A stretch of 45,744 nucleotides of DNA, from NCBI RefSeq assembly GCF_005144475.1, contig NZ_SWJZ01000054.1:1-45744 (forward strand), given 5' to 3'. Shown piece by piece: positions 4,268-26,233 of the stretch; within the stretch, counting starts at the first letter, position 1; each line of letters starts with the position of its first letter. The translations under genes and the position numbers were made by a program. The notes under the pieces were generated by a model. The model had not been told where the DNA came from. It worked only from the letters and a program-made list of their open reading frames with translations, and did not search any database. This DNA is from Rhodobacter capsulatus (GTDB lineage Bacteria > Pseudomonadota > Alphaproteobacteria > Rhodobacterales > Rhodobacteraceae).

Positions 4268-6067
4268 ATGTTTCAGGATTTCACCACCCGCTCGACCCGC
4301 GCGAACGGCCCGGCCCGGCTTGCCGCGTTGCGCAAGGCGATCGCGTCGGAGGGTCTGACCGGCTTCCTGATCCCGCGCGCCGACGTGCATCAGGGCGAAT
4401 ATGTCGCCGAGTGTGACGCGCGGCTGGGCTGGCTGACCGGCTTCACCGGCTCGGCCGGGTTCTGCCTCGTGCTGCCCGACATCGCCGGGGTCTTCATCGA
4501 CGGCCGCTACCGGGTGCAGGTGAAATCCGAGGTCGATCTGACCGCCTTCACCCCCGTCCCCTGGCCCGAGGTCAAGGCCGGTCCCTGGCTTCTGGACCAC
4601 CTGCCCGAGGGCGGGCGGATCGGCTTCGACCCCTGGCTGCACAGCCGCAAGGAGGTGGAGGATCTGCGCAAGGCGCTGGACGGCTCGGCCATCGACCTGG
4701 TCGAGACGGCGAACCTGATCGACGCGATCTGGACCGACCGCCCCGCCCCGCCGAGCGCGCCCGCCCGGGTGCATCCGCTGGAGTTTGCGGGGGAGCCGAG
4801 CGCGGAAAAGCGCCAGCGTCTGGGCGCGGCGCTGATGAAACAGGGGGCGCAGGCGGCGGTGCTGACCCTGCCCGACAGCATCGCATGGCTTTTGAACATC
4901 CGCGGCGCCGACATTGCCCGCAACCCGGTGATGCAGGCCTTTGCCGTGCTGCAGGCGAACGGCGATCTGACGCTTTTTGCCGAGGCCGCGAAGCTCTCGG
5001 ATGCGCTGCGCGCGCATCTGGGCAACGCGGTGACGTTGCGCCCGGTCGCGGCCTTCGACGGTGCGCTGCGCAGCCTGACCGGGCCGGTGCTGGTCGATCC
5101 GGGCTCGGCGCCGCATCAGGTCGGCCGCGAGCTGGAGGAGGCCGGCACAGAGGTGATCTGGGCCGAGGATCCCTGCATCCTGCCCAAGGCCCGCAAGACC
5201 CCGGCCGAGGTCGCGGGGATGCAGGCCGCCCATCTGCGCGACGGCGCGGCGGTGGTCGAGTTCCTGGCCTGGCTCGACACCGAGGCGCCCAAGGGCGCCC
5301 TGACCGAAATCGACGTGGTCACGCAGCTGGAACACCACCGCCGCGCCACGGGGCAGCTTCTGGACATCAGCTTCGACACGATCTGCGGCGCCGGGCCGAA
5401 CGGCGCGATCGTGCATTACCGGGTGACCGAAGCGACGAACCGCCGCGTCAGCCCCGGGGAACTCTTGCTGATCGACAGTGGCGCGCAATACCCGGACGGC
5501 ACCACCGACATCACCCGCACCCTCGCCGTGGGCCCGGTCCCCGAGGGCGCGGCCGAGGCCTTTACCCGGGTGCTGCAGGGGATGATCGCGATTTCCCGCG
5601 CCCGTTTCCCGCGCGGCCTTGCGGGGCGCGATCTTGACGCGCTGGCGCGGGTGGCGCTCTGGCAGGCGGGGATGGATTACGACCACGGCACGGGGCACGG
5701 CGTCGGCGCGGCGCTGTGCGTGCACGAAGGCCCGGCGCGGATCTCGCGCGTGTCCGACGTGGCCCTTGCGCCGGGCATGATCCTGTCGAACGAGCCGGGC
5801 CATTACCGCGAGGGACACTGGGGCATCCGGATCGAAAACCTGATCCTGGTGACCGAGGCGCCGAAATGCGGCGAGGGCCGCGATCATCTGTGCTTCGAAA
5901 CCCTGACCTGGGTGCCGATCGACCGCCGCCTGATCGTGACCGAGATGCTCTCGCGCGGCGAACGCGACTGGCTTGACGCCTATCACGCGGGCGTTCTGGC
6001 GCGGATCGGCCCGCTTGTGGGCCCCGCGGCCCGCGACTGGCTGAGGGCAGCCTGCGCGCCGCTTTGA
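4268..6067 (+). CDS. Xaa-Pro aminopeptidase (peptidase M24B)
   Basis: A 599-residue aminopeptidase P-family protein that removes an N-terminal residue preceding proline. It has the three-part form of the longer family members: two creatinase-like N-terminal domains (about 1-310) and a pita-bread catalytic domain. Metal ligands are visible in order: the two Asp of DSGAQYPDGTTDITRT, the His of GHGVGAALCVHEGP, the Glu of NEPGHY and the Glu of RIEN. The ATG at 4268 is chosen because it gives the family start MFQDF; a longer reading from 4205 would overlap cobT. It is probably the last gene of the cobST operon, though no metabolic link to B12 is obvious. Confidence 0.92.
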   Translation: MFQDFTTRSTRANGPARLAALRKAIASEGLTGFLIPRADVHQGEYVAECDARLGWLTGFTGSAGFCLVLPDIAGVFIDGRYRVQVKSEVDLTAFTPVPWPEVKAGPWLLDHLPEGGRIGFDPWLHSRKEVEDLRKALDGSAIDLVETANLIDAIWTDRPAPPSAPARVHPLEFAGEPSAEKRQRLGAALMKQGAQAAVLTLPDSIAWLLNIRGADIARNPVMQAFAVLQANGDLTLFAEAAKLSDALRAHLGNAVTLRPVAAFDGALRSLTGPVLVDPGSAPHQVGRELEEAGTEVIWAEDPCILPKARKTPAEVAGMQAAHLRDGAAVVEFLAWLDTEAPKGALTEIDVVTQLEHHRRATGQLLDISFDTICGAGPNGAIVHYRVTEATNRRVSPGELLLIDSGAQYPDGTTDITRTLAVGPVPEGAAEAFTRVLQGMIAISRARFPRGLAGRDLDALARVALWQAGMDYDHGTGHGVGAALCVHEGPARISRVSDVALAPGMILSNEPGHYREGHWGIRIENLILVTEAPKCGEGRDHLCFETLTWVPIDRRLIVTEMLSRGERDWLDAYHAGVLARIGPLVGPAARDWLRAACAPL

Positions 6068-6076
6068 CAGCAAGAA

Positions 6077-6240
6077 GGGGGGGCTCTGCCCCCCGTCCCT
6101 GCGGGACTCCCCCCGGGATATTTGCACCAAGGTGAAAACAGCTCTCGGTTTTCCTTGGCAAAATACGCCGTGGGGGAATTGCCGAAGGCAAGGGGGGCGC
6201 GCAGCCCCCCGCTGCGGGGGTCCGGGGGCAGAGCCCCCGG
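6077..6240. repeat. Paired inverted structured intergenic element, copy A
   Basis: This element fills almost all of the 179-bp gap between the converging pepP-like and ackA genes. The left half has an outer hairpin GGGGGGC-TCT-GCCCCCC (6078-6094), a middle hairpin GTCCC-TGC-GGGAC, and a core (6109-6137) containing GGGATATTTGCACCAAGG. The right half is inverted: core 6147-6176, middle hairpin TTGCC-GAA-GGCAA, outer hairpin 6192-6210, plus an extra hairpin CCGGGGGC-AGA-GCCCCCGG at 6222-6240. The right core is a diverged subtype related to the copy at 25180-25206. Hairpins on both strands could end transcription from either side, but no long T tract follows them. Confidence 0.85.
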
Positions 6241-6246
6241 CCTGGC

Positions 6247-7416
6247 TCAGAGATGCAGCGCGCCCTTGGCGGCCTGGGCGATCACCACTTCCTCGTTCGT
6301 CGGGATCACCCGCACCGCGACGCGCCCGGTGGAAATCTCGCGCGCATGCGCCAGGTTCGCCGTCTCGTCGAGCGTGATCCCCGCCCAATCCAGCCCCTCG
6401 CAGACCGCCGCGCGCACATGCGAGGAATTCTCGCCCACCCCGCCGCAGAACACCAGCGCATCCATCCCGCCCATCGCCGCCGCCAGCGAGGCGACCTCGC
6501 GTTTCACCCGGTGGCAGAAATAGTCGATCGCCTCCTTGGCATGCGGGTTCTTCGACGCCTCGAGCGTGCGCATGTCATTCGACACCCCCGACATCCCGAT
6601 CAGCCCCGAACGGCGGAACAGAAGGTCGGTGATGTCCTCGGCGTTCATCTTTTCCTGGTCCATCAGATAGACCACCACGCCTGCGTCCAGCTCGCCCGCC
6701 CGCGTCCCCATCGGCAGACCCGAGAGCGTCGAGAAGCCCATGGTGCAGGCGATCGACTGGCCATCATGCACGGCGCAGATCGAGGCGCCCGAGCCCAGGT
6801 GCGCGATCACCACGCGGCCCGCACGCAGCGCGGGTTCCTCGGCCGCCAGCACGCCGTCGATATAGGTGTAGCTCAGACCGTGGAAACCGTAGCGCCGCAC
6901 GCCCTTTTCGTAATAGTGCCGCGGCAGCGCATAGGTGTCATCGACAAAGGGATGGCCGCGATGAAAGGCGGTGTCGAAACAGGCGACGTTCGGCACGCCC
7001 GGAAAGGCCTCGATCGCCGCGCGCACGCCCGCCAGGTTGTGCGGCTGGTGCAGCGGCGCGAACGGGTTCAGCCGCTCGAGGTGGTCCATCAGCACGTCGG
7101 TGACCTTTTCCGGCTCGGCGTGATCGGTGCCGCCATGCACGATCCGATGCCCGATCGCGATGATCTCCAGCTCCGGCATGTCGGTGCGGAACGCCCCCAA
7201 GGCCGAGCGCAGCGCCAGCGTGTGGGTGGCGAAATCATCCGGGCCCAGATGCGGCACCGGCATCGCGACGCCATCGGCATCCTTCAGTTTCAGCGAGCCC
7301 TCGGGCGCGCCCAGACGGTCGACATGCGCGGTGGCGAGCGGCGTCAGCGCCTCGTCGAACAGCCCGAGTTTCAGCGAGGACGAGCCCGCGTTCAGCGTCA
7401 GAATCGCGCGCGTCAT
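6247..7416 (-). CDS. ackA: Acetate kinase
   Basis: A 389-residue acetate kinase of the ASKHA fold, interconverting acetate plus ATP with acetyl phosphate plus ADP. The phosphate-binding motif NAGSSSLK lies at residues 9-16. GHRIVHGG, the FDTAFH region, HLGSGASICA and GTRAGELDAG are all present, and the length is typical. Its start codon overlaps the stop of the upstream phosphotransacetylase gene by one base (TGATG), so translation is coupled. Together the two form an acetyl-CoA/acetyl-phosphate/acetate module for overflow or substrate-level ATP. A role with propionate or butyrate cannot be excluded from sequence. Confidence 0.95.
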   Translation of the reverse strand: MTRAILTLNAGSSSLKLGLFDEALTPLATAHVDRLGAPEGSLKLKDADGVAMPVPHLGPDDFATHTLALRSALGAFRTDMPELEIIAIGHRIVHGGTDHAEPEKVTDVLMDHLERLNPFAPLHQPHNLAGVRAAIEAFPGVPNVACFDTAFHRGHPFVDDTYALPRHYYEKGVRRYGFHGLSYTYIDGVLAAEEPALRAGRVVIAHLGSGASICAVHDGQSIACTMGFSTLSGLPMGTRAGELDAGVVVYLMDQEKMNAEDITDLLFRRSGLIGMSGVSNDMRTLEASKNPHAKEAIDYFCHRVKREVASLAAAMGGMDALVFCGGVGENSSHVRAAVCEGLDWAGITLDETANLAHAREISTGRVAVRVIPTNEEVVIAQAAKGALHL

Positions 7417-8801
7417 CAGCGGCTCCCCCCGCAGATCCGGTTCCAGTGGATCGAGGCGACCGCAGCCGAGGCCAGCCGTGCCATCGCGCTGTCGGACCGC
7501 GAGTTCAGGATCACCGGCACCCGCGCGCCCAGCACGACACCCGCCGCTTCGGCATGGGAAATATAGGCCAGCTGCTTGGCCAGCATGTTGCCCGCGTCGA
7601 TCCCCGGCACCACCAGCACATCGGCCTGCCCGGCGACCGGACCGCGCAGCCCCTTGGTGCGCGCGGCGCCGATATCGACCGCATTGTCCATGGCCAGCGG
7701 CCCGTCGACCACCCCGCCCTTGATCTGCCCGCGCTCGGCCATCTTCGAGAGCAGCGCCGCGTCGATCGACGAGGGCATCGCCGGGTTCACCGTTTCAACC
7801 GCGCTCAACACGCCGACTTTCGGCGTCTCCATGCCGAGCGAAATCGCCAGATCGATGGCGTTTTGCACGATGTCGACCTTGGTCGCCAGATCGGGGGCAA
7901 TGTTGATCGCCGCATCGGTCACCAGCAGCGGATGGCTGACACCGGGCACGTCCATCACGAAGACATGGGTGAAACGCCGCCCGATCCGCAGCCCCTTTTC
8001 CTTGTCGAGCATCGGCCGCAGCAGGTCATCGGTGTGCAGATGCCCCTTCATGATCGACTGGGCGCGGCCCGCGCGCACCAGCTCGACCGCGGCACGGGCG
8101 GCGTCGCGGTGGCTCAGCATCTCGACGATCTCGAAGCCCGAAAGCGATTTCGACAGCGCCTTCGCCGCCGCCTCGATCTTCGCCGGATTGCCGATCAGAA
8201 TGGGTTTGATCAGCCCGCGCTCGGCCGCGATCAGCGCGCCCTCCAGCGCCGATTGCTCCTCGGGGCAAACCACCGCCGTCGCCAGTTCCGGCAGGTCCGC
8301 GGCCTTTTCCAAAAGCGCCTCGAAATGGCGGTGGCGCTGCACGATCAGCCCCGGCGCGTCGATTTCCTCGTAGCGGATGTAGGTTTTCGGCGCCAGAACC
8401 CGCGCCGTGCCCGAACAGATCAGCGCGCCGCCCTCGACCCGGCGCACCTCGGTCGCCAGCACGATCACGCCCTCGGGCTCCTTGCCCGTCACGGTGACCT
8501 TGGCCACCAGCTCCTCGCCTGCGGTGACATAATCATGGAAGCTCAGCTGCTGATCGCGGTAGCGCGTGCCCGGCCCGGGCAGGATCGAGCCCAAGAGCGA
8601 GGAGATCAGCGCGGCCACGAACAGCCCCGGCGCCAGCGGCTTTTCCTTTTGCCCGTCTTCGTCAACATGCTCGAGGTGCATCGGGTTGTGGTTCCCCGAG
8701 GCAGCGACGAAGGCATAGATATCATCGGCGGTGCAGAGCCTGCGCAGCTCTGCGCTCATCCCCGGCTCGATTTCGTGATACATGCGGCTTTCGAAAATCA
8801 T
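7416..8801 (-). CDS. Bifunctional MaoC-like hydratase / phosphate acyltransferase
   Basis: A 461-residue fusion. Residues about 1-145 form a MaoC-type hot-dog hydratase domain, with the segment HNPMHLEHVDED typical of that fold. Residues about 160-455 form a PTA/PTB phosphotransacylase domain (MKGHLHTDDLLRPML and VLVVPGIDAGNMLAKQL). The enzyme should move an acyl group between CoA and phosphate for the acetate kinase encoded next to it. Such fusions are commonly annotated as enoyl-CoA hydratase/phosphate acetyltransferase. Whether the MaoC domain is catalytic or structural here is unknown. A GGAGT-type ribosome-binding site precedes the start at 8801. The 159-bp gap to the divergent flavoprotein gene should carry both promoters. 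Confidence 0.9.
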   Translation of the reverse strand: MIFESRMYHEIEPGMSAELRRLCTADDIYAFVAASGNHNPMHLEHVDEDGQKEKPLAPGLFVAALISSLLGSILPGPGTRYRDQQLSFHDYVTAGEELVAKVTVTGKEPEGVIVLATEVRRVEGGALICSGTARVLAPKTYIRYEEIDAPGLIVQRHRHFEALLEKAADLPELATAVVCPEEQSALEGALIAAERGLIKPILIGNPAKIEAAAKALSKSLSGFEIVEMLSHRDAARAAVELVRAGRAQSIMKGHLHTDDLLRPMLDKEKGLRIGRRFTHVFVMDVPGVSHPLLVTDAAINIAPDLATKVDIVQNAIDLAISLGMETPKVGVLSAVETVNPAMPSSIDAALLSKMAERGQIKGGVVDGPLAMDNAVDIGAARTKGLRGPVAGQADVLVVPGIDAGNMLAKQLAYISHAEAAGVVLGARVPVILNSRSDSAMARLASAAVASIHWNRICGGSR

Positions 8802-8960
8802 CGCGGACTCCTTCCATCACCGCGACTCTGCGGCGTTCTCCTGTCCGAGCGAATTGGTGCATCCGCGAGAGACATTGTTCAACGTCCGCTTGCTGCGGTT
8901 TTTCGCCCCTTTCGGGACGGCGCCGATCCGCTTAAGACGGGACGACAGCGGGAGGGGCAG

Positions 8961-10346
8961 ATGGCAGACGCGACATTCTGGCAAGAGGCGCAGGTAATTT
9001 TCGGCAATCGGATCAGCAAAAAAAGGACAGATTGCGAAAGCCATGGCCAATCCGAGACCTGGTTCCCCCTGACCCCGCCCGAGGCGGTGGTCTTCCCCGA
9101 GAGCACCGAAGAGGTCGCCGCCCTCACGAAAATTTGCGCGGCCCATCGCGTGGCCCTGGTCGGCTGGGGCGCGGGAACTTCGCTTGAAGGCCATGCTCTG
9201 GCGGTCGCGGGCGGGATCGTGGTCGATTTCAGCCGCATGAACCGGGTGCTGGAGGTTCGCGCCGAAGACCGGCTGGTCCGGGTCGAACCCGGCATCCCCC
9301 GCGAGGCGCTGAATGCCGAGCTGCGCGCGACGGGGCTGTTCTTCCCGGTCGATCCGGGGGCGAATGCGTCGCTTGGCGGGATGGCCGCGACGCGGGCGAG
9401 CGGCACGACGACGGTGCGCTATGGCTCGATGCGGGACAATGTGGCGGGGCTGACGGTGGTTCTGGCCGACGGGCGGGTGATCCGCACCGGCTCCGGCGCG
9501 GTGAAATCGGCGTCGGGCTATGATCTGACGGCGCTGATGCTGGGGTCCGAAGGCACGCTTGGCATGATCACCGAACTGACGCTGCGGCTGCATGGCCAGC
9601 CCGAGGCGGTGTCCTCGGCGGTCTGCGCCTTTGACCGGTTCGAGGCGGCGGTCGAGACCGTGCAGCATGTGATCCAGCTGGGCATCGAGGTCGCGCGGAT
9701 CGAATTCGTCGACGAGGACATCGCCCGCATCTTCAACAAGATGAACGGCACCGCCCTGCCCGAGACGCCGCATCTGATGGTGGAATTCCACGGCTCGGAA
9801 GCGGGGGTGGCCGAGGCCTCGGAACGCTTCGGCGAGGTGGTGGCCGAGATGGGCGGCGCCGATTTCCAATGGGCGACGACGACCGAGGAGCGCAACCGGC
9901 TCTGGAAGATGCGGCACGGCGCCTATTCGGCCTGCATCGCCTCGCGGCCGGGCTGCATGGGGCTGGTGACCGACGTCTGCGTGCCGATCTCGCGGCTGGC
10001 CGAGGCGGTGGCGCGGGCGCGGGCGATGATTGCCGCGGCGGGGCTGACGGGGCCGATCCTCGGCCATGTCGGCGACGGCAATTTCCACGCCATCCTGCTT
10101 CTGGACCGGGACAACCCGGCCGAGCTGGAGACGGCGAAACAGGTCGCGCATGATCTCGCCGCGATGGCGCTGGCGATGGGCGGCACGATCACCGGGGAAC
10201 ACGGGATCGGCCTTGGCAAGCGGGCGATGATGGCCGAAGAACACGGAGAGGCCTGGGCGGTGATGGGGGCGATCAAGGCGGCGCTCGATCCCTTGAACAT
10301 CCTCAACCCCGGCAAGCTGGTGCCGCAAGCCGGAGAGATGCCGTGA
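8961..10346 (+). CDS. FAD-linked oxidase, D-lactate dehydrogenase-like
   Basis: A 461-residue flavoprotein of the GlcD/D-lactate dehydrogenase family. The N-terminal PCMH FAD-binding domain shows GAGTSLEGHA, DPGANASLGGMAATRASGT and SGYDLTALMLGSEGTLG. The C-terminal FAD-oxidase domain ends with GHVGDGNFHAI and ITGEHGIGLGKR. By analogy with mitochondrial LDHD it would oxidise D-lactate or another 2-hydroxy acid and pass electrons to cytochrome c or quinone. No GlcE or GlcF partner follows, which favours a single-subunit D-lactate dehydrogenase over glycolate oxidase. The start at 8961 follows a strong GGGAGGGG ribosome-binding site. The reading frame stays open far upstream, but that stretch is antisense to the acyltransferase gene. 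Confidence 0.88.
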   Translation: MADATFWQEAQVIFGNRISKKRTDCESHGQSETWFPLTPPEAVVFPESTEEVAALTKICAAHRVALVGWGAGTSLEGHALAVAGGIVVDFSRMNRVLEVRAEDRLVRVEPGIPREALNAELRATGLFFPVDPGANASLGGMAATRASGTTTVRYGSMRDNVAGLTVVLADGRVIRTGSGAVKSASGYDLTALMLGSEGTLGMITELTLRLHGQPEAVSSAVCAFDRFEAAVETVQHVIQLGIEVARIEFVDEDIARIFNKMNGTALPETPHLMVEFHGSEAGVAEASERFGEVVAEMGGADFQWATTTEERNRLWKMRHGAYSACIASRPGCMGLVTDVCVPISRLAEAVARARAMIAAAGLTGPILGHVGDGNFHAILLLDRDNPAELETAKQVAHDLAAMALAMGGTITGEHGIGLGKRAMMAEEHGEAWAVMGAIKAALDPLNILNPGKLVPQAGEMP

Positions 10347-10735
10347 GCCTGAGCCAACCGGCAGAGCTGCCGCGAACCTTTGCCGTGCTCTGGGGGGCGC
10401 GCGACGCGCTCGGGCTGTCGCAGCTTTTCGTCGAGGATGGCGAGCTTTTGAGCCTCACCGGCGGCGCGGCGCTGGGCCGGACGGCGATCGCCGAGCTGAT
10501 GGCGGGCGAATTCGCCGGCGCCTTTCAGCGCGCGCGGCTGGTGACGGGCCGCACCCGGCTGCGCCCGATCGGCACCGCGGTGACGGTGCTGATGCAACGC
10601 TTCGTGCTCTCGGGTCTGGTGGACGAGGCCGGGCAGGATGCGGGCCGGATCGGCGCCGTGCTGTGCGCCACGCTGGAATGCCTCGGCCCCGAGGATTGGC
10701 AGATCGTCACCGCGCAATTCGTCGTGGAATCGTAA
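10343..10735 (+). CDS. Small NTF2-like (SnoaL/DUF4440-type) protein
   Basis: A 130-residue protein starting at a GTG that overlaps the stop of the flavoprotein gene by four bases (GTGA), so the two are translationally coupled. The pattern of an N-terminal helix (LWGARDALGLSQLFVEDGELLSL), a central helix, and three C-terminal strands ending in DWQIVTAQFVVES suggests a cone-shaped NTF2-like fold, as in SnoaL or DUF4440 proteins. No catalytic residues can be assigned. The tight coupling implies a role with the flavoenzyme, but that is inference. Confidence 0.7.
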   Translation: MSLSQPAELPRTFAVLWGARDALGLSQLFVEDGELLSLTGGAALGRTAIAELMAGEFAGAFQRARLVTGRTRLRPIGTAVTVLMQRFVLSGLVDEAGQDAGRIGAVLCATLECLGPEDWQIVTAQFVVES

Positions 10736-10741
10736 GGCAAG

Positions 10742-10895
10742 CGGGGGGCGCTGCCCCCCCTTTGCGCTGACGCGCAAATTCCCCCCCGGGATATTTCGAC
10801 CAAGGTGAAATGGGGTCGGGGAAAGCCCCTGCCCTTTCACCTTGGTGCAAATATCCCGGGGGGAGTCCCGCAGGGACGGGGGGCAGAGCCCCCCT
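10742..10895. repeat. Paired inverted structured intergenic element, copy B
   Basis: This element occupies the whole gap between the converging small NTF2-like gene and recN. Left half: outer hairpin GGGGGGC-GCT-GCCCCCC (10743-10759), middle hairpin TTTGCG...CGCAAA (10761-10778), core 10782-10810. Right half, inverted: core 10835-10863, middle hairpin GTCCC-GCA-GGGAC (10865-10877), outer hairpin 10878-10894. The right half is, over about 60 bases, the reverse complement of the left half of copy A, identical apart from flanking bases. The left core carries a TTTCGACC variant. Confidence 0.9.
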
Positions 10896-10898
10896 GCC

Positions 10899-12548
10899 TC
10901 AGCCGTGCAGAAGCGATTGCGCCGCGGCCCGGGCGGCGTCGGTCACCTCGGCGCCCGAGATCATCCGGGCGATTTCATCGACCCGTTCGGGCGGCGGCAG
11001 CGCCTCGACGCGCGAGGTGGTCATGCCGTCCGTCACCGATTTCGCGACGCGGAAATGATGCGAGCCGCGCGCGGCGACCTGCGGGCTGTGGGTGACGACC
11101 AGAACCTGCGCGGTTTCCGACAGCTGCGCCAGCCGCCGCCCGACCGCATCGGCGGTGGCGCCGCCGACGCCGCGGTCGATCTCGTCGAAGATCAGAACCA
11201 GCGCATCGGCGCCTTTCGCCAGCACCACCTTCAGCGCCAGAAGAAAGCGCGACAATTCCCCGCCCGAGGCGATCTTGTCGAGCGGCCCCGCCGGGGCGCC
11301 CGGGTTCGTCGCCACGGTGAAGGCGACCGTATCCCAGCCCTCGGGCCCGGGCTCGCCGCGCGAAAGTTTCGTCGCAAAGACCGCGCGTTCCAGCTTCAGC
11401 GGCGCCAGCTCCGCCGCCATCGCCGCATCCAGCCGCCCCGCCGCCTCGGCCCGCGCCGCCGAAAGCCGCGTCGCCGCCGCGCCAAAGGCCGCCTCGGCCG
11501 CCGCGACATCGGCCGTCAGCCGGGAAATCCCTTCTTCGCCCGCATCAAGCGCCGCCAGCCGCGCCGAGAGCTTGCCGCTCAGCTCGGCCAGATCGTCCGG
11601 CGCCATGCCATGTTTGCGCGCCGCCGCCCGCAGCGCAAAAAGCCGCTCCTCGCAGGCTTCCAGCGCGCGCGGATCGAAGGCCATCGCCTGCAGCGCCGCC
11701 TCGATGCCCGAGACCGCCTCACCGAGCTCGATCAGCGCCCGTTCGAGCGAGGCCATCGCACCATCAAGCGCGCCTTCGGCCTTGTCGGCGGCGCCCGCAA
11801 GCCAGCGGTCGGCATCGCGCATCGCCCCCTCGGCGCCCTCGGGGCCAAGGATCTGATGCGCGCGCAGCACATCGGCGCGGATGCGTTCGGCCGCCTGCAT
11901 CAGACGGCGGCGGGTATCAAGATCGGCCTCTTCGCCCGCGACGGGGGCCAGCTTGTCCAGTTCCGCCACGGCATGGCGCAGGAAATCTTCCTCGCCCTTC
12001 ACCGCGGCCAGCGCCGCCTCGGCCTCGGAGAGCCGCTTCGCCGCCGCCGCCCGCGCCGTCCAGGCCGTGCGGACCGCCGCCAGAAGATCGTCATGGCCCG
12101 CAAAGGCATCGAGCGCGGCGCGGTGGCCGCGGGCGTTCAACAGCCCGCCATCATCCTGTTGCCCGTGCAGTTCGACCAAGGTCTCGGAGACCGCGCGCAG
12201 CACCTCGCCGCTCGCCCGGCGGTCGTTGATGAAGGCGGTCTTGCGGCCATCCAGCGCATTCACCCGGCGCAGGATCAGCTCGTCTTCGGCCGGGATCCCC
12301 GCCTCTTCCAGCACCCGGCGCGCCGGATGGCCCGCGGGCAGCTCGAACACCGCCACCACCTCGCCCTGCGACGCGCCCTTGCGGACCAGTTCCGCCCGGC
12401 CGCGCCAGCCCAGCACGAAGCCCAGACAATCAAGCAGGATCGACTTGCCCGCCCCGGTCTCGCCGGTGAGCACATTCAGACCGGCGCCGAAATCAAGGGC
12501 AAGCCGGTCGATCAGCAGCATGTCACGAATATCAAGCGTGCGCAGCAT
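10899..12548 (-). CDS. recN: DNA repair protein RecN
   Basis: A 549-residue SMC-like ATPase used in repair of double-strand breaks. The N-terminal Walker A motif is GETGAGKS (about residues 29-36). Long Ala/Glu-rich coiled coils fill the middle (about 150-370). The C-terminal half of the ATPase shows the signature KIASGGELSRFLLALK and Walker B LIFDEIDRGVGG. The length is normal. It is the last gene of the minus-strand cell-wall cluster, 30 bases after bamD, so it probably shares that transcript. I looked for an alphaproteobacterial LexA box (GAAC-N7-GAAC) just upstream and did not find one. Confidence 0.96.
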   Translation of the reverse strand: MLRTLDIRDMLLIDRLALDFGAGLNVLTGETGAGKSILLDCLGFVLGWRGRAELVRKGASQGEVVAVFELPAGHPARRVLEEAGIPAEDELILRRVNALDGRKTAFINDRRASGEVLRAVSETLVELHGQQDDGGLLNARGHRAALDAFAGHDDLLAAVRTAWTARAAAAKRLSEAEAALAAVKGEEDFLRHAVAELDKLAPVAGEEADLDTRRRLMQAAERIRADVLRAHQILGPEGAEGAMRDADRWLAGAADKAEGALDGAMASLERALIELGEAVSGIEAALQAMAFDPRALEACEERLFALRAAARKHGMAPDDLAELSGKLSARLAALDAGEEGISRLTADVAAAEAAFGAAATRLSAARAEAAGRLDAAMAAELAPLKLERAVFATKLSRGEPGPEGWDTVAFTVATNPGAPAGPLDKIASGGELSRFLLALKVVLAKGADALVLIFDEIDRGVGGATADAVGRRLAQLSETAQVLVVTHSPQVAARGSHHFRVAKSVTDGMTTSRVEALPPPERVDEIARMISGAEVTDAARAAAQSLLHG

Positions 12549-12578
12549 CTCAGCCCCCTGCCCCGGTCCCCTGCGGGA

Positions 12579-13424
12579 TCAGAGCCATTCGCCTTTGATG
12601 ACCTGCCGATAGATCGCCGAAAGCCAGCTTTTCCCCTTGGCCTCGGGTTCAAGACCGATCTTTTTCAGACGCTTGTAGGCGTCGTCATAGAAGGGCGAGG
12701 ACTGGAAGTTGTGGCCGAGGATCGCCGCCGCCGTCTGCGCCTCGTCGGTCAGGCCGAGCGAGAGATAGCATTCGACGAGCCGCATCAGCGCCTCGGGCGT
12801 GTGGGTGGTGGTCTGATACTGCTCGACCACGACGCGGAAGCGGTTGATCGCGGCGGTGTAATGACCTTTTTTCAGATAGAAGCGGCCGATCTCCATTTCC
12901 TTCGAGGCCAGATGGTCGAAGGCGAGGTCGAATTTCAACGCCGCCGAGCGGGCGTAATCGCTGTCGGGATATTCCTCGATCACCGCGCGAAGCGCCTGCA
13001 GCGCCTGGAAGGTCAGGCCCTGATCCCGGCCGACCTCGTCGATCTGGTCGTAGTAGCTCAGCGCCAGCAGATATTTCGCATAGGCGGCATCCTCGGACCC
13101 CGGATAGGTGTCGAGATAGCGCTGCGCCGAGGACCGGGCCTCTTCGTATTTCTTCGCCTTGTGGCTGGCGAAAGCCTCCATGATCAGCGCGCGCTTGGCA
13201 TATTCGGAATAGGGGTAAAGCCGCTCCACTTCCGAGAAATAGCGCAGCGCATCGGCGGGACGGCGCGGGTTGCCGACTTCAAGTTCATATTCGCCGCGCT
13301 TGTAGATTTCCTCGGCGGTGAAATTTTCCAGCGGCGGCTCCTTTTGCGTCGGACCGCAGGCCGCCAAAGCCGCAAGCAGCGCAAGACTGCCGACCCGTAG
13401 CGCCGCCGTTTTGCCCGTTGCCAT
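12579..13424 (-). CDS. bamD: Outer membrane assembly lipoprotein BamD
   Basis: A 281-residue lipoprotein with a signal peptide ending in the lipobox LAAC; the acylated Cys lies near residue 23. The mature part is TPR-like: NFTAEEIYKRGEYELEVG, then repeated units such as YPYSEYAKRALIMEAF and YPGSEDAAYAKYLLALSYYDQ. BamD is the essential lipoprotein of the BAM complex that inserts beta-barrel proteins. The length fits. A GAAGAGG ribosome-binding site precedes the ATG. The 153-bp gap to lpxC upstream includes a possible terminator, so bamD-recN may also have its own promoter there. Confidence 0.94.
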   Translation of the reverse strand: MATGKTAALRVGSLALLAALAACGPTQKEPPLENFTAEEIYKRGEYELEVGNPRRPADALRYFSEVERLYPYSEYAKRALIMEAFASHKAKKYEEARSSAQRYLDTYPGSEDAAYAKYLLALSYYDQIDEVGRDQGLTFQALQALRAVIEEYPDSDYARSAALKFDLAFDHLASKEMEIGRFYLKKGHYTAAINRFRVVVEQYQTTTHTPEALMRLVECYLSLGLTDEAQTAAAILGHNFQSSPFYDDAYKRLKKIGLEPEAKGKSWLSAIYRQVIKGEWL

Positions 13425-13514
13425 CGCTGCCTCTTCCGTTCGTCACCGGAACTGCGTCCGGTCTGCCGCCTCTGACCCCCGGGGGGGGGCCGCTGTTTCG
13501 CCCGTCCTAGCACA

Positions 13515-13550
13515 GAAAAAACGGCGGCGCAAAACGCCTTTCACGCGCCG
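13515..13550 (-). terminator. Probable rho-independent terminator after lpxC
   Basis: Read on the minus strand, CGGCGC and GCGCCG form a 6-bp stem around a 14-base loop. Six consecutive T follow after two bases. It lies 28-63 bases past the lpxC stop. The stem is short for a strong terminator, so partial read-through into bamD is plausible. Confidence 0.5.
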
Positions 13551-13577
13551 GGGGATGACTGACGCGGCCGTGAAGGC

Positions 13578-14495
13578 TCAGCGCGCCGCCATCGCCCCGC
13601 GCAGCACGCCCGCGCCCGGCAGACGATGCGCCTGCTCGGGCGAGCAGGTTTCCCAGACCCAGGCGTCCGGATCGGCGAAAAGCGCGCGCAAAAGCTTGTT
13701 CGTCAGCGCATGGCCGGCGCGATTGCCGACATAGCGCGCCATCAAGGGCGCCCCGGCCAGCGCCAGATCGCCCATCGCGTCCAGCATCTTGTGGCGCACG
13801 GCCTCATCGGCGTGACGCAGACCGCCGGGCGACAGCACCGCGGCGCCATCGACGACGACGGCGTTTTCATAGGTGCCCCCCAGCGCAAGGCCATGGGCGC
13901 GCATGTAATCGACATCGGCCTGACGGCAGAAGGTGCGGCTGTCCATCAGCTCGCGCACGAAGGCGCCATTGGCCATCTTCAGGCTTTTCGCCTGTTTGCC
14001 GATCGCCGCATCGGCGAAGTCGATGGCGAAATCGATTTCCAGCGTCGCCGCCGGTTCCAGCCGCGCGACGGCCTCGCCCTCGCGCACTTCGACCGGATGC
14101 AGCACCCGGATCGCGCGCAGATCGGCGTCAAGACGCCGCAGGCCGACGCGGCGGATCGCCTTCACGAAGGGCGCCGAGGAGCCGTCGAGAATCGGCACTT
14201 CCGGCCCGTCGATCTCGATCAGCGCATTGCCGATGCCCAGACCGGCCAGCGCCGCCATGACATGTTCGATCGTCGAGACGGAAACGCCGTCGGCGTTCAC
14301 GATCAGCGTGCACAGCTTCGAGGGCGTGACATGGTCCCACAGCGCCGGGATGCGCGGATCGACCCCCGTCACATCGGTGCGACGGAAGACGATGCCGTGA
14401 TCGGCGGGGGCGGGATGCGCAAGCATCCGCACCGGCTTGCCCGAATGCAGGCCGATCCCGACGAAGGTGACAGATGCGCCAAGCGTGGTTTGCAC
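13578..14495 (-). CDS. lpxC: UDP-3-O-acyl-N-acetylglucosamine deacetylase LpxC
   Basis: A 305-residue zinc deacetylase catalysing the committed step of lipid A synthesis. Zinc and catalytic motifs are clear: TIEHVMAALAGLGIGNALIE (zinc His), DGPEVPILDGSS, and RHKMLDAMGDLALAG (zinc His and Asp). I prefer the GTG at 14495 because it gives the family N-terminus (M)QTTLGASVTFVGIGLHSG and follows AAAGG. The in-frame GTG at 14522 adds a basic nine-residue peptide without a ribosome-binding site. It sits between ftsZ and bamD, as is common at the end of dcw clusters. The terminator after ftsZ suggests lpxC has its own promoter in the 14496-14667 region. Confidence 0.95.
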   Translation of the reverse strand: MQTTLGASVTFVGIGLHSGKPVRMLAHPAPADHGIVFRRTDVTGVDPRIPALWDHVTPSKLCTLIVNADGVSVSTIEHVMAALAGLGIGNALIEIDGPEVPILDGSSAPFVKAIRRVGLRRLDADLRAIRVLHPVEVREGEAVARLEPAATLEIDFAIDFADAAIGKQAKSLKMANGAFVRELMDSRTFCRQADVDYMRAHGLALGGTYENAVVVDGAAVLSPGGLRHADEAVRHKMLDAMGDLALAGAPLMARYVGNRAGHALTNKLLRALFADPDAWVWETCSPEQAHRLPGAGVLRGAMAAR

Positions 14496-14654
14496 GGTCG
14501 TGCTTGCCTTTCTTTTCCCCACACCGATCGTGGCGGGGAGTTCCGAGCCTCAGTTAAGAACCGTTGACCAAACACACAATTCACCTTTTGCAACAAACTG
14601 AAACAGAAGGCCGGAGCTTGGGCGAATCCCTGCCGACCAAGGCTTAAATATTTG

Positions 14655-14691
14655 ATTAACAAAAGAAAAGGGCCGGTTTTCACCGGCCCTT
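14655..14691 (-). terminator. Rho-independent terminator after ftsZ
   Basis: A perfect 9-bp stem (AAGGGCCGG and CCGGCCCTT, 14668-14691) with a six-base loop lies 20 bases beyond the ftsZ stop. On the minus strand it is followed by TTCTTTTGTT. This is the clearest intrinsic terminator in the window and separates ftsZ from lpxC. Confidence 0.88.
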
Positions 14692-14711
14692 GTGCGACAT
14701 GTTGTGATGCG

Positions 14712-16430
14712 TCAATTCGCCTGGCGACGCAGGAAAGCCGGGATCTCGATGCGATCCTGATCGGGATCCTGTTCATCGTCATAGGGCTGGTGCTGCGGCG
14801 CGGCGGGCATCTGACGCTGAGTCGGGGCCAGCGCGGCGGCCTCGGCATGGCCGGTCATCCGGTTGATCAGCGAATTGATGCCGAAGCGCGGCTTTTCGGC
14901 GGCTTGCGGCGCCGGGGCGCGGGCAAGGCTGCCCGCGGGCTGCGCCATCGGGCGGTGATAGCCCGCGGCGGGGGCCGGGTTGCCCTGCGGCACCTTGCTG
15001 ACCGCGGCCTGCAGCCGGGCCAGCGCCTCGGGCGAGGGTTGGCCGGGCGCGCGCGGACGCGGCGCGACGAAGCTGGCCTCGTCGTCCTGCAGCATCATCT
15101 CGCGCGCGGCGGCGCGGGGCTGATAGGCGGGCGGCGGCAGTTCGTCGCTGAACTGTTGCGGCTGCGGCTGCGGCGCGGGCATCGGTTGCGGCGCGGGCGC
15201 GGCGGCGACCGGCGCCTCGAACAGGTTGCGGTCATAGACCGGCTGCGCGGCCGGTTGCTGCGGCGCGGGCATCGGCTGTTGCGCGACCGGCTGCGGCGCG
15301 GGTTGCGGCGCGACGGGTTGCGGCGCGGGTTGCTGCATCACCACCGGCTGCGCCGAGGTCACGGTCAGCGCCGGACGCGCGGGCTCGACCGGCGCAGGGG
15401 CGGGATGTGCGGATTTCAGCGGCTCGGCCATCGAGCGGCGCGGCACCGGGATTTCCTGCGCCGGGGCGGCATCGATGCCGGTCGCCACGACCGACACCCG
15501 CATCATGCCATCCATCGACGGATCCAGCGTCGAGCCGACGATGATGTTCGCATCCGGGTCCACTTCCTCGCGGATGCGGTTGGCGGCTTCGTCCAGTTCG
15601 AACAGCGTCAGATCATAGCCGCCGGTGATGTTGATCAAGACGCCCTTGGCGCCGCGCAGGCTGATTTCATCGAGCAGCGGGTTCGAGATCGCCTTTTCGG
15701 CGGCCTGAACGGCGCGGTCATCGCCCGCGGATTCGCCCGTGCCCATCATCGCCTTGCCCATCTCGTCCATCACCGCGCGGACGTCGGCGAAGTCGAGGTT
15801 GATCAGGCCCGGACGGACCATCAGGTCCGTCACGCCCTTGACGCCCTGATAGAGCACGTCATCGGCCAGCGCGAAGGCTTCGGTGAAGGTGGTCTTTTCA
15901 TTCGCCAGACGGAACAGGTTCTGGTTCGGAATGATGATCAGCGTGTCGACGACCTTTTGCAGGGCTTCGATGCCCGCCTCGGCCTGACGCATGCGTTTCG
16001 GCCCTTCGAACTGGAAGGGTTTCGTCACCACGCCGACGGTCAGCACGCCCAGTTCGCGGGCGGCCTGCGCGATGATCGGGGCCGCGCCGGTGCCGGTGCC
16101 GCCGCCCATCCCCGCGGTGATGAAGCACATGTGCGCGCCGACCAGATGATCGACGATCGCCTCGATGCTTTCTTCGGCCGCGGCGGCGCCGACCGAGGGA
16201 CGGGCGCCCGCGCCGAGACCCTCGGTCACTTTCACGCCCATCTGGATCCGATCGCGCGAGCGCGATTGCTGCAGCGCCTGCGCATCGGTGTTCGCCACGA
16301 CGAATTCGACGCCTTCCAGCGCCTTGTCGATCATGTTGTTGACCGCGTTGCCACCCGCACCACCGACCCCAAAGACGGTGATCCGCGGCTTGAGGTCTTC
16401 GTGCTCTGACATGCTCAGATTCAAGGTCAT
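14712..16430 (-). CDS. ftsZ: Cell division protein FtsZ
   Basis: A 572-residue tubulin-like GTPase that forms the Z ring. The N-terminal GTPase core (about 15-330) has the tubulin signature [12 protein letters not shown] and the N-terminal motif [18 protein letters not shown] very long, Pro/Gln/Ala-rich linker (about 345-550) follows. The conserved C-terminal peptide [13 protein letters not shown] binds FtsA and other partners. The linker makes it far longer than E. coli FtsZ (383 residues), as in other Rhodobacterales. The ATG at 16430 gives the N-terminus MTLNLSM; a second ATG at 16412 is possible. Ribosome-binding sites are weak for both. It lies 202 bases after ftsA, so extra promoters in the gap are likely. 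Confidence 0.97.
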
Positions 16431-16535
16431 TGGAGTCCGCCTGTGTTCCCGCGGCCTTCATCGGCCGACTGTCCCCGAAATTACCCCCAAGTGTATCCAG
16501 CTTTCAGGGTTCCGTCACCCAAAAAACACAACAAA

Positions 16536-16630
16536 TCCACAAAATGTGGACAGTTACCAGAGGCATTCGGCGGCATTTCGCGCATGACGCAGCATCTGGG
16601 GAAGCGAATCGGCTTTCACCCTGTGGATAG
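16536..16630. promoter_or_regulatory. Cluster of DnaA-box-like motifs between ftsA and ftsZ
   Basis: The 202-bp ftsA-ftsZ gap is more AT-rich than its surroundings and contains three TCCACA cores. Two form a perfect inverted repeat TCCACA-AAA-TGTGGA (16536-16550). The third, CTATCCACA (minus strand, 16622-16630), differs from the DnaA consensus TTATCCACA by one base. They lie about 105-200 bases before the ftsZ start. Binding by DnaA is inference. Confidence 0.4.
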
Positions 16631-16632
16631 GT

Positions 16633-17961
16633 CTACCAATTGTCGCGGAACCAGCGGATCGCGCGCTTGAACGAGCGCCCTCCCATGCGTTCCAGCGGGA
16701 TCTCGAAATCCCACCATTCATCCTGCGGACAGGCCGCGAACAGCGCCAGACCGACCATCGCGGCAAAGCCCGGGCCGCGCATCGCCTCGGGCATGCCCTG
16801 AACGCGCATCGGGCGGCCCAGCCGCACGTTCTGGCCCAGGATCTTCGCCGCCAGCATGTCGAGCCCGGGGATCTGGCTCGCCCCGCCGGTCAGCACGATC
16901 TGCTGGCTCGGCAGCAGATCGAACCCGGCCACGTCCAGACTGGCACGGACCTCCTCGAGGATTTCCTCGACGCGCGGGCGCATGATGCCGATCAGCTCGG
17001 TGCGGCTGATCTGGCGGCGGTCCTTTTCCCAGTCGCCCGAATTGGCCGAGAGCTCGATCATCTCGCGGTCGTCCATGCCGGTCGCATGCACGCCGCCGTG
17101 GAAGGTCTTGATCCGCTCGGCCAGCGCCATCGGCACCTGCAGCCCGGCCGAGATGTCGCGGGTGACGGTATCGCCGCCCATCCGCACGGTATCGGCAAAA
17201 ATCATGTGTTTTTTCAGGAAGATCGAAACGCCCGTGGCGCCGCCGCCCATGTCGATGCAGGCCGCGCCCAGTTCCTGTTCATCCTCGACCAGCGCCGAAA
17301 GCCCCGCCACATAGGCCGAAGAGGCAATCCCCGCCAGTTCCAGATCGCAGCGCCGGATGCAGGTGATGATGTTCTGCACCGAGGCGGCATCGACCGTCAG
17401 CATATGCATGTCGGTGGCCAGTTTCGCGCCGACATGGCCGCGCGGATCCGAGAGCCCCGAGCGGTGATCGAGCGCGAAGTTCACCGGATGGGCATGCAGC
17501 ACCTCGCGACCCCAGCCGATGTCGGGCATGTCGCAGGCGGCCAGCACCCGGGCCACGTCCTGTTCCTCGACATGGCTGCCCGCCACATCGACATCGCCCG
17601 CCAGCCCGTAGCTGCGCGGCTCGCCCCCGGCGAAACAGGCGATGACGTGATCGACACGGGTATTCGCCATCTTCTGCGCCGCCTGCACCGCGGTGCGGAT
17701 CGCGCGTTCGGTTTCCGCCATCGCGTCGATCTCGCCGTAGCGGACGCCTTGCGACGCGATGGTCTTCGCCCCGATCACCCGCATCGCCGATTGCTGGAAC
17801 AGCGGCGTCGGATAATCATTCGCCGCTTCGGGATTTTCGAAGCGCAGCACCAGACAGGACACTTTCGAGGTGCCGATATCCAGCAGCGCGATCACGCCGC
17901 GCGCCATCGCGGTGGTCCGCATCGTCCGCATGGCACGCTGAGTCTTGTGGAACTCGGTCAT
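16633..17961 (-). CDS. ftsA: Cell division protein FtsA
   Basis: A 442-residue actin-like protein that tethers FtsZ to the membrane and recruits the divisome. ASKHA nucleotide-binding motifs are visible: VIALLDIGTSKVSCLVL near the N-terminus, CIDMGGGATGVSIF in the middle and QIVLTGGASQIPGLD near the C-terminus. The end (ERMGGRSFKRAIRWFRDNW) is an amphipathic, Arg/Trp-rich helix, as expected for the membrane-targeting sequence. Its ATG overlaps the ftsQ stop by four bases (ATGA), so translation is coupled to ftsQ. The length is slightly above the E. coli protein. Confidence 0.96.
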   Translation of the reverse strand: MTEFHKTQRAMRTMRTTAMARGVIALLDIGTSKVSCLVLRFENPEAANDYPTPLFQQSAMRVIGAKTIASQGVRYGEIDAMAETERAIRTAVQAAQKMANTRVDHVIACFAGGEPRSYGLAGDVDVAGSHVEEQDVARVLAACDMPDIGWGREVLHAHPVNFALDHRSGLSDPRGHVGAKLATDMHMLTVDAASVQNIITCIRRCDLELAGIASSAYVAGLSALVEDEQELGAACIDMGGGATGVSIFLKKHMIFADTVRMGGDTVTRDISAGLQVPMALAERIKTFHGGVHATGMDDREMIELSANSGDWEKDRRQISRTELIGIMRPRVEEILEEVRASLDVAGFDLLPSQQIVLTGGASQIPGLDMLAAKILGQNVRLGRPMRVQGMPEAMRGPGFAAMVGLALFAACPQDEWWDFEIPLERMGGRSFKRAIRWFRDNW

Positions 17962-19864: not shown

Positions 19865-19941
19865 GCCCGCCACTTTCGCCCCTGCCGGGGTTCTCCCCCG
19901 GGCTGTTCTTGCCGCATCTTGTTGTGGAATGCGCGACGACC

Positions 19942-20862: not shown

Positions 20863-20897
20863 GCCCCTGCCATAGCGAGAGCGACCCAATGGGGCAA

Positions 20898-21045
20898 GAG
20901 GGGGGGCGCTGCCCCCCTCGGCTTCGCCTCCCCCCCCGGGATATTTGCGCCAAGGTGAAAGGGAACCCGGGGCCTGCTTTCACCTTGGTCCAAATATCCC
21001 GGGGGGTGAATTGGCCGAAAGGCCAAGAGGGGGGCAGAGCCCCCC
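20898..21045. repeat. Paired inverted structured intergenic element, copy C
   Basis: Left half: outer hairpin GGGGGGC-GCT-GCCCCCC (20901-20917), short middle hairpin GGC-TTC-GCC (20920-20928), core 20932-20960. Right half, inverted: core 20978-21006, middle hairpin TTGGCC-GAAA-GGCCAA (21011-21026), outer hairpin GGGGGGC-AGA-GCCCCCC (21029-21045). Unlike copies A and B it lies between two genes read in the same direction (DUF2484 then murB), inside the dcw cluster, so it should be transcribed. Confidence 0.9.
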
Positions 21046-21056
21046 TGCCCCGCCCG

Positions 21057-21296: not shown

Positions 21297-21321
21297 GGCT
21301 GTCCTCCGATGCGGGCTGGCG

Positions 21322-23828: not shown

Positions 23829-23839
23829 GTCACCCTCCC

Positions 23840-25009: not shown

Positions 25010-25078
25010 CGCGAAAACCGCTCGTTTGCCTGATCTGCCGAGGAACGCCCGATTGCCGGGTCTTGGCACCGACTTTAG

Positions 25079-26233
<1,155 letters not shown>

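What the first reader, a model, noticed from the sequence alone, without database searches (positions are those of the whole stretch)
10742..10895. A family of paired, inverted structured intergenic elements
Seen: cores containing GGGATATTTGCACCAAGG or close variants occur seven times, six of them as three face-to-face pairs (6109-6176, 10782-10863, 20932-21006) plus one single (25180-25206). Each core sits next to a GC-rich hairpin of constant shape, so a full element is about 150 bp of nested symmetry. The left half of copy A and the right half of copy B agree over about 60 bases. Known: similar motifs recur in Rhodobacterales genomes as far as I recall, but I know of no assigned function. 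Inference: a REP/BIME-like family acting as transcript ends, RNA stabilisers or protein-binding sites, perhaps moved by a RAYT-like transposase encoded elsewhere.
Basis: partly seen in the sequence, partly recalled or inferred. Interest (0 to 1): 0.72.

Follow-up and report, generated by a model that had tools for sequence, protein, structure and literature searches.

The report
Paired gene-end repeats in Rhodobacter
Rhodobacter chromosomes carry hundreds of copies of a short two-part sequence, often in mirror-image pairs with hairpins where genes end, and closely related species spell many of these copies differently in the same way, as if one unknown factor read them all.

Summary
The core occurs 277 times in this 4.2 Mb genome and 254 times in Rhodobacter capsulatus SB 1003 (reversed controls 0). 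It is almost confined to gaps between genes: 22 of 51 convergent gaps of 40 nt or more carry it, against 17 of 259 tandem and 3 of 100 divergent.

A full element is H1 hairpin, H2 hairpin, C-run, core, core', G-run, H2', H1', predicted to fold as a cloverleaf. H2 tends to keep a stem but not its letters. The core is the opposite: its TATTT-N4-CAAG frame keeps its letters even without a mate, while spacer and version positions change fast, and mates of one subtype match no better than random members.

Between sister species many cores change alike: in subtype ii, position 19 is G in one and A in the other at 16 of 20 orthologous sites.

The arrangement resembles REP/BIME elements, but the single core is not palindromic, has no GTAG or CGTC tag, and no Y1/RAYT transposase was found (0 of 18 genus genomes).

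Best reading: gene-end modules of hairpins (terminator or stabiliser) plus a bipartite site for an unidentified trans-acting factor. The function is inferred and no factor was identified.

The parts
6077..6210 (.). Element A (convergent, M24 peptidase gene / acetate kinase gene): H1 6077-6094, H2 6095-6107, core + 6115-6137 (subtype i), core - 6147-6169 (GGCGTATTTTGCCAAGGAAAACC, one base shorter in the spacer), H2' 6179-6191, H1' 6192-6210; a further hairpin at 6222-6240
   Evidence: RNA fold -112.3 kcal/mol on + strand
10743..10894 (.). Element B, the given finding (convergent, ORF of 116-130 aa without Pfam match / recN-like gene): H1 10743-10759, H2 10761-10778, core + 10788-10810, core - 10835-10857, H2' 10865-10877, H1' 10878-10894
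   Evidence: fold -127.8, z -10.6, cloverleaf; region after the same gene in 18 genomes
20900..21045 (.). Element C (tandem, DUF2484 gene then murB, both on - strand): H1 20900-20917, H2 20920-20928, core + 20938-20960, core - 20978-21000, H2' 21011-21026, H1' 21029-21045
   Evidence: the same gap in G408, G409 and G421 holds subtype ii-like cores on both arms
25160..25209 (+). Element D, single half between divergent ftsW (-) and a lactate/malate dehydrogenase gene (+): hairpin 25160-25178, core 25186-25209 (GGCGTATTTGCACCAAGGAAAACC)
   Evidence: present in 4 of 4 close species, one base shorter in G421

Best explanation
A REP/BIME-like family of gene-end modules with two functionally different parts. 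(1) GC-rich hairpins (H1 of G-run/C-run type, H2 whose stem tends to be kept while its letters change) act as RNA structures at transcript ends, most likely as orientation-independent intrinsic terminators and 3'-end protectors. (2) A 23-nt bipartite core, built on TATTT-N4-CAAG-N3-AA, is a recognition site for an unidentified trans-acting factor (most likely a DNA-binding protein, since the core is found in either orientation relative to the gene). It sits where genes end, above all between converging genes, to stop or insulate transcription or to handle the torsion that collects there. Shown: copy number, intergenic confinement, convergent enrichment, H2 stems above shuffled, letter-kept core frame independent of a mate, shared change of many sites between species, absence of a Y1 transposase. 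Inferred: the factor, its nature (DNA rather than RNA), and the action on transcription.
For: Intergenic: relaxed motif 66 times in 82.8 kb between genes, 5 times in 721.6 kb of coding sequence, reversed control 0 and 3. Convergent gaps of at least 40 nt: 22 of 51 carry a core; tandem 17 of 259; divergent 3 of 100; 0 of 10000 label shuffles reach 22. Orientation in tandem gaps 13 to 13, of which 16 are paired halves and so balanced by construction; the 10 singles split 5 to 5. Orthologous single cores, 38 comparisons aligned without asking for a motif match: the 13 positions that are most informative among the own genome's copies are identical in 465 of 494 cells (94%), TATTT plus CAAG in 326 of 342, intergenic flanks in 1217 of 1447 (84%). 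In 82 pairs the arms share a subtype far beyond chance (1591 matched positions, 1428.5 expected when mates are shuffled within species, 0 of 2000), but within a subtype they are no better matched than shuffled mates (1591 vs 1599.0, 1704 of 2000) and the N positions pair at 0.32 and 0.35, so it is the sequence and not the stem that is kept. Shared change: position 19 of subtype ii is G in G000 and A in G408 at 16 of 20 orthologous sites; 13 of 34 sites with a version change kept their spacer; genome-wide the A version counts 2, 59, 40, 18 in G000, G408, G409, G421. Junctions keep a core in 34 of 36, 32 of 35 and 23 of 29 cases. H2: in 96 halves the mean longest stem is 4.73 bp vs 3.04 after letter shuffling, 89 of 96 above their shuffled mean, 18 different stems among the 57 halves with 5 bp or more. 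An ordinary terminator sequence stands after ackA in G334 and G413, and in G420 a core pair lies in a stem followed by TTTTT (my reading of the letters).
Against: No factor was identified, and no transcript or binding data were available. Taken whole, the single core is no more conserved than its flanks (738 of 874 = 84.4% vs 84.1%): only part of its positions is slow, and the spacer (70 of 114) is faster than the flanks, which a binding site alone does not explain and a homogenising process would. Subtype sets differ at 11 of 36 junctions. The one-way look of the position-19 change has little power the other way: only 1 of 21 subtype ii sites has A in G000. The three divergent junctions (D, J17, J27) all keep their core in the four species, which an end-of-gene role does not predict. 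A single core between dnaN and a recF-like gene, a likely operon, is also kept in 4 of 4. 39 of 96 halves have an H2 stem below 5 bp. Many hairpins lack a clear U-tract. My terminator finder fired in 128 of 639 intragenic controls, so I make no claim from it. Genes were called with a home-made finder, and the sampled contigs were chosen because they had hits.
Confidence: 0.43

Rival explanations
1. Plain bidirectional intrinsic terminators: everything is RNA hairpin, and the core is only the stem sequence that happens to have spread.
For: Convergent enrichment; strong predicted folds; subtype ii pairs often have the outline AAGGGCG...CGCCCTT, like the ordinary-looking terminator beside J25 (my reading); an ordinary terminator sequence stands in its place in G334 and G413.
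Against: Mates do not compensate each other within a subtype and the central N positions pair at chance. Single cores with no mate keep the letters of their frame. Several cores lie beyond an ordinary-looking terminator (J6, J8) or in a 46-nt gap without a GC hairpin (J24).
Confidence: 0.25
2. A mobile or self-homogenising REP/REPIN-like element, moved or rewritten by a process that does not use a Y1 transposase, with no host function.
For: Discrete subtypes; 3 to 282 copies per genome in the genus; junctions with stop codons a few nt apart and no element in G411, G412, G419; subtype swaps at fixed junctions; spacer faster than flanks and whole core no slower than flanks.
Against: No PF01797 protein in any of 18 genomes. 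Positions are stable between species. No copy found on the 133 kb plasmid pRCB133 by exact pattern or weight model, where about 8.7 would be expected from the genome's 254 at up to 2 mismatches (the expectation is my arithmetic). Version changes without spacer change, 13 of 34, look like point substitutions, not re-insertion.
Confidence: 0.14
3. Topological sites: binding or loading places for gyrase or a nucleoid protein of the GapR kind where positive supercoils collect ahead of converging RNA polymerases.
For: Convergent far above divergent, as reported for GapR signal in E. coli (passages of PMC8360656); E. coli BIME-2 binds gyrase (passage of PMC2817692); orientation is free among tandem singles; chromosome only in SB 1003 as far as tested.
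Against: The passages tie GapR to torsion with a modest link to AT content, not to a 23-nt site. Whether these genomes encode GapR was not tested. Nothing links gyrase to this core.
Confidence: 0.1
4. RNA 3'-end processing module: hairpins H1/H2 upstream of an AU-rich RNase E site (RU|AUU in RTATTT).
For: TATTT is the most conserved part and RTATT fits the E. coli RNase E consensus as I recall it (recalled, no call). The order hairpin then RTATTT holds in halves that have H1 and H2.
Against: Among tandem singles the core points either way, 5 to 5, and in 11 of 20 singles it is the antisense strand that follows a stop codon within 30 nt.
Confidence: 0.05
5. DNA uptake signals that double as terminators, as in Neisseria and Pasteurellaceae.
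For: Inverted close pairs of a short conserved word at gene ends (passages and section 11 of PMC1852404).
Against: Uptake words are reported as generally 1000 copies or more; here 277. Only 5 relaxed matches in 722 kb of coding sequence against 3 for the reversed motif. That uptake words also lie in genes is recalled.
Confidence: 0.03

Closest known systems
REP / BIME elements (GTAG REPs with RAYT; E. coli BIME-1 and BIME-2)
   Same: More than 100 copies per genome, extragenic, paired in opposite orientation, next to 3' ends, mainly convergent and tandem gaps (passages of PMC2817692 and PMC3733652)
   Different: No RAYT or other Y1 protein found; no GTAG tag; the single core is not palindromic; the hairpins are separate parts beside the core
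CGTC-tagged REPs, common in alphaproteobacteria and without a dedicated transposase (PMC3733652)
   Same: Alphaproteobacterial, mostly paired, without transposase, near 3' ends of converging genes
   Different: CGTC units are 8-9 bp stems with 4-5 nt loops and mostly a CCA tail (section 6); here no CGTC at a fixed place and no such stem in the core. Rhodobacter, Paracoccus and Ruegeria are not named in the main text; its figures, which list the species, are not held
Uptake-signal terminators of Neisseria and Pasteurellaceae (PMC1852404)
   Same: Terminator hairpins made by two inverted copies of a conserved word that also occurs singly
   Different: Far fewer copies here, hardly any in genes, species-specific spelling
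HRC-8-4 motif of Rhodobacterales (PMC8632094)
   Same: Rhodobacterales intergenic terminator-like stem with conserved letters
   Different: Reported mainly between two cco operons (passages), not as a repeat family; no letters were compared

Membership tests
REP/BIME (GTAG type) | High copy, extragenic, opposite-orientation pairs | tested here: met
   277 copies; 24 of 26 neighbours +-; 66 intergenic vs 5 coding
REP/BIME (GTAG type) | Unit itself is a 20-40 bp palindrome | tested here: not met
   Longest inner stem of the 28-nt core is 2 bp in 13, 3 bp in 48, 4 bp in 8, 5 bp in 1 of 70
REP/BIME (GTAG type) | GTAG tetranucleotide at one end | tested here: not met
   GTAG once and CTAC four times in the 128-nt surroundings of 70 cores, no fixed offset
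REP/BIME (GTAG type) | Associated RAYT (Y1 tyrosine transposase, PF01797) | tested here: not met
   0 of 18 genus genomes; 5 of 14 control genomes positive
CGTC REP | CGTC tag, 8-9 bp stem, 4-5 nt loop, CCA tail | tested here: not met
   CGTC has no fixed offset (36 in all, best offset 4 of 70) and no 8-9 bp stem lies in the core. H2 begins GTCC in some halves but with a 3-5 bp stem. The CCA tail was not tested on its own
Intrinsic terminator | GC-rich hairpin followed by a U-tract | tested here: inconclusive
   H1 of element A on the minus strand is called terminator-like, but 17 sites were found in 5900-25400 where shuffles give 11.9, and my own finder fires in 128 of 639 controls
Intrinsic terminator | Transcripts end there in vivo | not testable with these tools
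   No RNA 3'-end data for these species at hand
Uptake signal sequence | About 1000 or more copies | tested here: not met
   277 copies
Uptake signal sequence | Also frequent inside genes (recalled) | tested here: not met
   5 in 722 kb coding vs 3 for reversed motif
Known Rfam family | Score above gathering threshold | tested here: not met
   0 matches in the window; with a loose E-value 34 below-threshold matches to element B, led by microRNA precursors, which I take as chance of a long hairpin

The most novel reading that the evidence does not exclude
Rhodobacter chromosomes carry several hundred sites for one or a few unknown sequence-specific factors that mark gene ends, chiefly where converging transcription meets. 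The factors' letter preference has shifted between sister species and drawn many scattered sites after it, a fast co-evolution of a global factor and its sites that can be watched across R. capsulatus and its close relatives.
Probability: 0.33. Interest if true: 0.82.

Novelty: new variant of a known kind. Interest (0 to 1): 0.6.

Why it matters
R. capsulatus SB 1003 is a laboratory organism with good genetics, and its genome holds 254 of these sites, none of them found on its plasmid. If the core is a factor-binding site, there is a global gene-end factor to be found there. If it is a homogenised repeat, it is a fast case of concerted evolution without a known transposase. In either case the four close species give a ready-made mutational series: the same junctions with different core versions.

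Tried and rejected
RAYT/Y1 transposase: searched in the own and 18 genus genomes, none. Rfam at gathering score: none; loose E-value: microRNA-type hairpins lead, rejected. My own canonical-terminator finder: hits in 128 of 639 intragenic controls, dropped. The claim that every half follows a gene's 3' end in sense orientation: dropped. The claim that the core stem is kept by compensatory changes: tested and dropped. My first conservation count of single cores was conditioned on at most 3 mismatches to the consensus and so biased; it is replaced. The position set was chosen after seeing relatives, so repeats it with positions chosen from the own genome's copies alone (1.5 bits or more); the total is the same, 465 of 494. 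Of the 12 junctions that one search reports as differing in subtype set, J5 is an artefact of my trimmed G000 piece, so 11.

Literature: word searches, one search with six core sequences (23) and one for GapR (100), in an open-access library only; each listed at most 15 results. Nothing listed describes this repeat in Rhodobacter. Only a term count of zero was seen of PMC2267715, PMC5217627 and PMC4666352. Passages were seen of PMC12306157, PMC8632094, PMC5107571, PMC7866481, PMC2864571, PMC2817692, PMC8360656, PMC3733652 (plus its section 6) and PMC1852404 (plus its section 11). The rest were seen in search listings only. A description in a subscription journal cannot be excluded.

Rows dropped before counts: 3 of 40 clustered junctions had no usable neighbour. 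J30 was found in no relative, J32 not in G409, and 8 of 37 junctions lack G421 (not located or not fetched). Relatives with a gap inside the core were left out; 3 deleted or replaced cases were left out. One of 21 singles had no gene on one side and was left out; element A counts as a single there because its other arm scores below the model's threshold.

Full report
Observation. The core GGGATATTTGCACCAAGG occurs six times in the window with up to 3 mismatches (0.01 expected) and a seventh time one base shorter, as three face-to-face pairs and one single. In the whole genome there are 127 copies of the 18-mer and 277 of the widened pattern GGSRTATTTGNNSCAAGRWRAAR with up to 2 mismatches, with 0 in the reversed controls. 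A position-weight model found 70 copies in a sample of about 804 kb (five contigs chosen because they had hits, plus the window) and 0 in the reversed sequence.

Anatomy. A full element reads H1 (G-run, loop, C-run), H2, C-run, core, short gap, core', G-run, H2', H1', and folds in prediction as a cloverleaf with H1 paired to H1' (elements B and C). Three core subtypes coexist: i GGGATATTTGNNCCAAGGTGAAA, ii GGCGTATTTGNNCCAAGAAGAAA, iii GGGATATTTGNNGCAAGATRAAR (read, used). The gap between facing cores is short for most ii and iii pairs and longer for i. H2 tends to be kept as a stem and not as a sequence: in 96 halves from four species its mean longest stem is 4.73 bp against 3.04 after letter shuffling, with 18 different stems among the 57 halves that have 5 bp or more; 39 halves have less.

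Place. With a home-made gene finder, 39 of 70 cores lie between convergent genes, 26 in tandem gaps, 4 in divergent gaps and 1 at a contig end. By junction: 22 of 51 convergent gaps of at least 40 nt, 17 of 259 tandem, 3 of 100 divergent, none of 46 convergent and none of 301 tandem gaps under 40 nt; 0 of 10000 label shuffles reach 22. The relaxed motif occurs 66 times between genes and 5 times in coding sequence, reversed control 0 and 3. In tandem gaps the orientation is 13 to 13; 16 of these are paired halves and balanced by construction, the singles are 5 to 5. In 11 of 20 singles the tail of the core comes within 30 nt of a stop codon; in 4 of 20 the head does.

Spread. Of 289 genomes drawn from the class (only 3 others of the family, none of the genus) the own genome alone is rich; the others show 0 to 3 matches, like the control. 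All 18 genomes of the genus have it, 3 to 282 copies. In the family 36 of 120 genomes match GTATTTN{3,6}CAAGAWGAAR, some with only 1 match, the richest with 154; the genomes whose places are listed differ in spelling. G409 is R. capsulatus SB 1003: its contig C2 is 132,962 bases long and its first 5000 bases are identical to pRCB133. That genome has 254 copies at up to 2 mismatches; on C2 neither the exact pattern nor the weight model finds one. In 80 named recN loci, 9 of 10 relaxed matches, in 8 loci, lie just after recN: Rhodobacter viridis, Thioclava marina, three Rhodovulum species, one Aliiroseovarius and two MAGs; reversed control 0. Similar half elements lie on plasmids of Phaeobacter, Paracoccus and Thioclava, 11 records (4 of them opened); in the three whose letters I read the core is altered or missing. 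Of two exact core patterns, one has no match in the viral collection and one has four.

The same junctions in relatives. After recN, G000 and G408 have a full pair, G409 one half, G421 subtype iii; G417, G418 and G420 have other spellings; in G411, G412 and G419 the stop codons are a few nt apart with no element. After ackA the arms differ in subtype between species, and G334 and G413 have an ordinary-looking terminator instead. Before murB the whole pair is i/i in G000 and ii-like on both arms in G408, G409 and G421. For 37 further junctions a core (up to 4 mismatches) is still there in 34 of 36 (G408), 32 of 35 (G409) and 23 of 29 (G421); the subtype set differs at 11 of 36 (corrected for J5).

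What is kept. In 82 pairs, arms share a subtype (72 of 82) far beyond chance, but within a subtype they are no more complementary than shuffled mates, and the N positions match at 0.32 and 0.35. In orthologous singles (38 comparisons, aligned without asking for a motif match) the core as a whole is identical in 738 of 874 cells, no more than its intergenic flanks, 1217 of 1447. But it is uneven: the 13 positions most informative among the own genome's copies are identical in 465 of 494, TATTT plus CAAG in 326 of 342, the rest in far fewer, the spacer in 70 of 114; 3 further cases were deleted or replaced. So a frame of letters is slow and does not depend on pairing, while the letters between are faster than their surroundings. 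The single between dnaN and a recF-like gene is present in 4 of 4 species (the recF-like piece matches SMC_N below the curated cut-off), as are the three divergent cases D, J17 and J27.

Shared change. Between G000 and G408 (neighbouring coding sequence 93% identical) 48 cores align without gaps. TATTT differs in 0 to 2% per position, the spacer in 29 to 44%. In subtype ii, position 19 is G in G000 and A in G408 at 16 of the 20 sites that have G in G000; only one site has A in G000, so the reverse could hardly be seen. In subtype iii GGGAT stands against GAGGT at 7 of 10 sites and position 19 A against G at 6 of 9. Of 34 sites with a version change, 13 kept the spacer, and the spacer changed about as often without a version change, 8 of 14; so not all changes are block copies. 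Against G409 the ii difference is seen at 13 of 22 sites, against G421 at 2 of 21. Genome-wide, the A version of ii counts 2 in G000, 59 in G408, 40 in G409, 18 in G421, 38 in G417, 13 in G418, 6 in G334, 2 in G413 and 0 in the other ten genomes. The difference in ii runs opposite to that in iii at the same position, so a single mutational bias does not explain both. The polarity is not known.

Interpretation. The hairpins behave like RNA structure, the core frame like a recognised sequence. A bipartite core whose frame is kept without a mate, stands in either orientation, avoids genes, marks gene ends and differs in the same way at many sites between species is what sites of a trans-acting factor would do. 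I commit to that reading at 0.43, with the hairpins as terminator or 3'-end protector. The fast spacer, the whole-core figure and the subtype swaps keep a homogenising process in play, alone or in addition. On checking I lowered the best reading from 0.45 to 0.43 and the novel case from 0.35 to 0.33, and raised the mobile or homogenising rival from 0.12 to 0.14, because of the whole-core figure and the third conserved divergent case. The preference for convergent gaps fits termination, torsion handling and REP-like elements alike and does not separate them.

Known relatives. The arrangement is that of REP/BIME elements, but a palindromic unit, the GTAG or CGTC tag and the RAYT were tested and not met. 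The uptake-signal terminators of Neisseria are the nearest analogue of hairpins built from two copies of a conserved word, but copy number and near absence from genes speak against membership. I file it as a new variant of the REP/BIME-like kind, not as a REP. No listing of the searches named in Tried and rejected describes it.

Noticed in passing
L309 12425-12510, minus strand (IMGVR_UViG_2740891858_000001): A mixed pair (subtype ii facing iii) with a following hairpin lies in the gap between a terminase gene and a phage portal gene of a 14 kb contig that looks like the R. capsulatus gene transfer agent cluster (that identity is recalled; proteins by Pfam, letters, found).
   Followed up: partly
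G000 contigs C101:48, C113:115, C124:24, C157:10, C164:22: Several contigs of the draft genome begin within about 115 nt of a core, so the repeat probably breaks the assembly.
   Followed up: no
recN 3' junction, L127, L138, L151, L157, L164, L168, L174, L188: The gap after recN carries a core in several genera while the rest of the named loci gave 1 of the 10 matches; in three Rhodovulum loci the antisense core begins within about 20 nt of the recN stop codon.
   Followed up: partly
own-genome sample: 46 of 97 convergent neighbours have stop codons less than 40 nt apart and carry no element; how transcription ends there is open.
   Followed up: no
window 6222-6240: A further hairpin CCGGGGGCAGAGCCCCCGG lies between H1' of element A and the acetate kinase stop codon, so this junction holds three GC hairpins on one side.
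   Followed up: no
G000:C160:159816-159843 (J24): A lone subtype ii core in a 46-nt gap between dnaN and a recF-like gene, present in four species; position 19 is A in G408 and G in the other three.
   Followed up: partly
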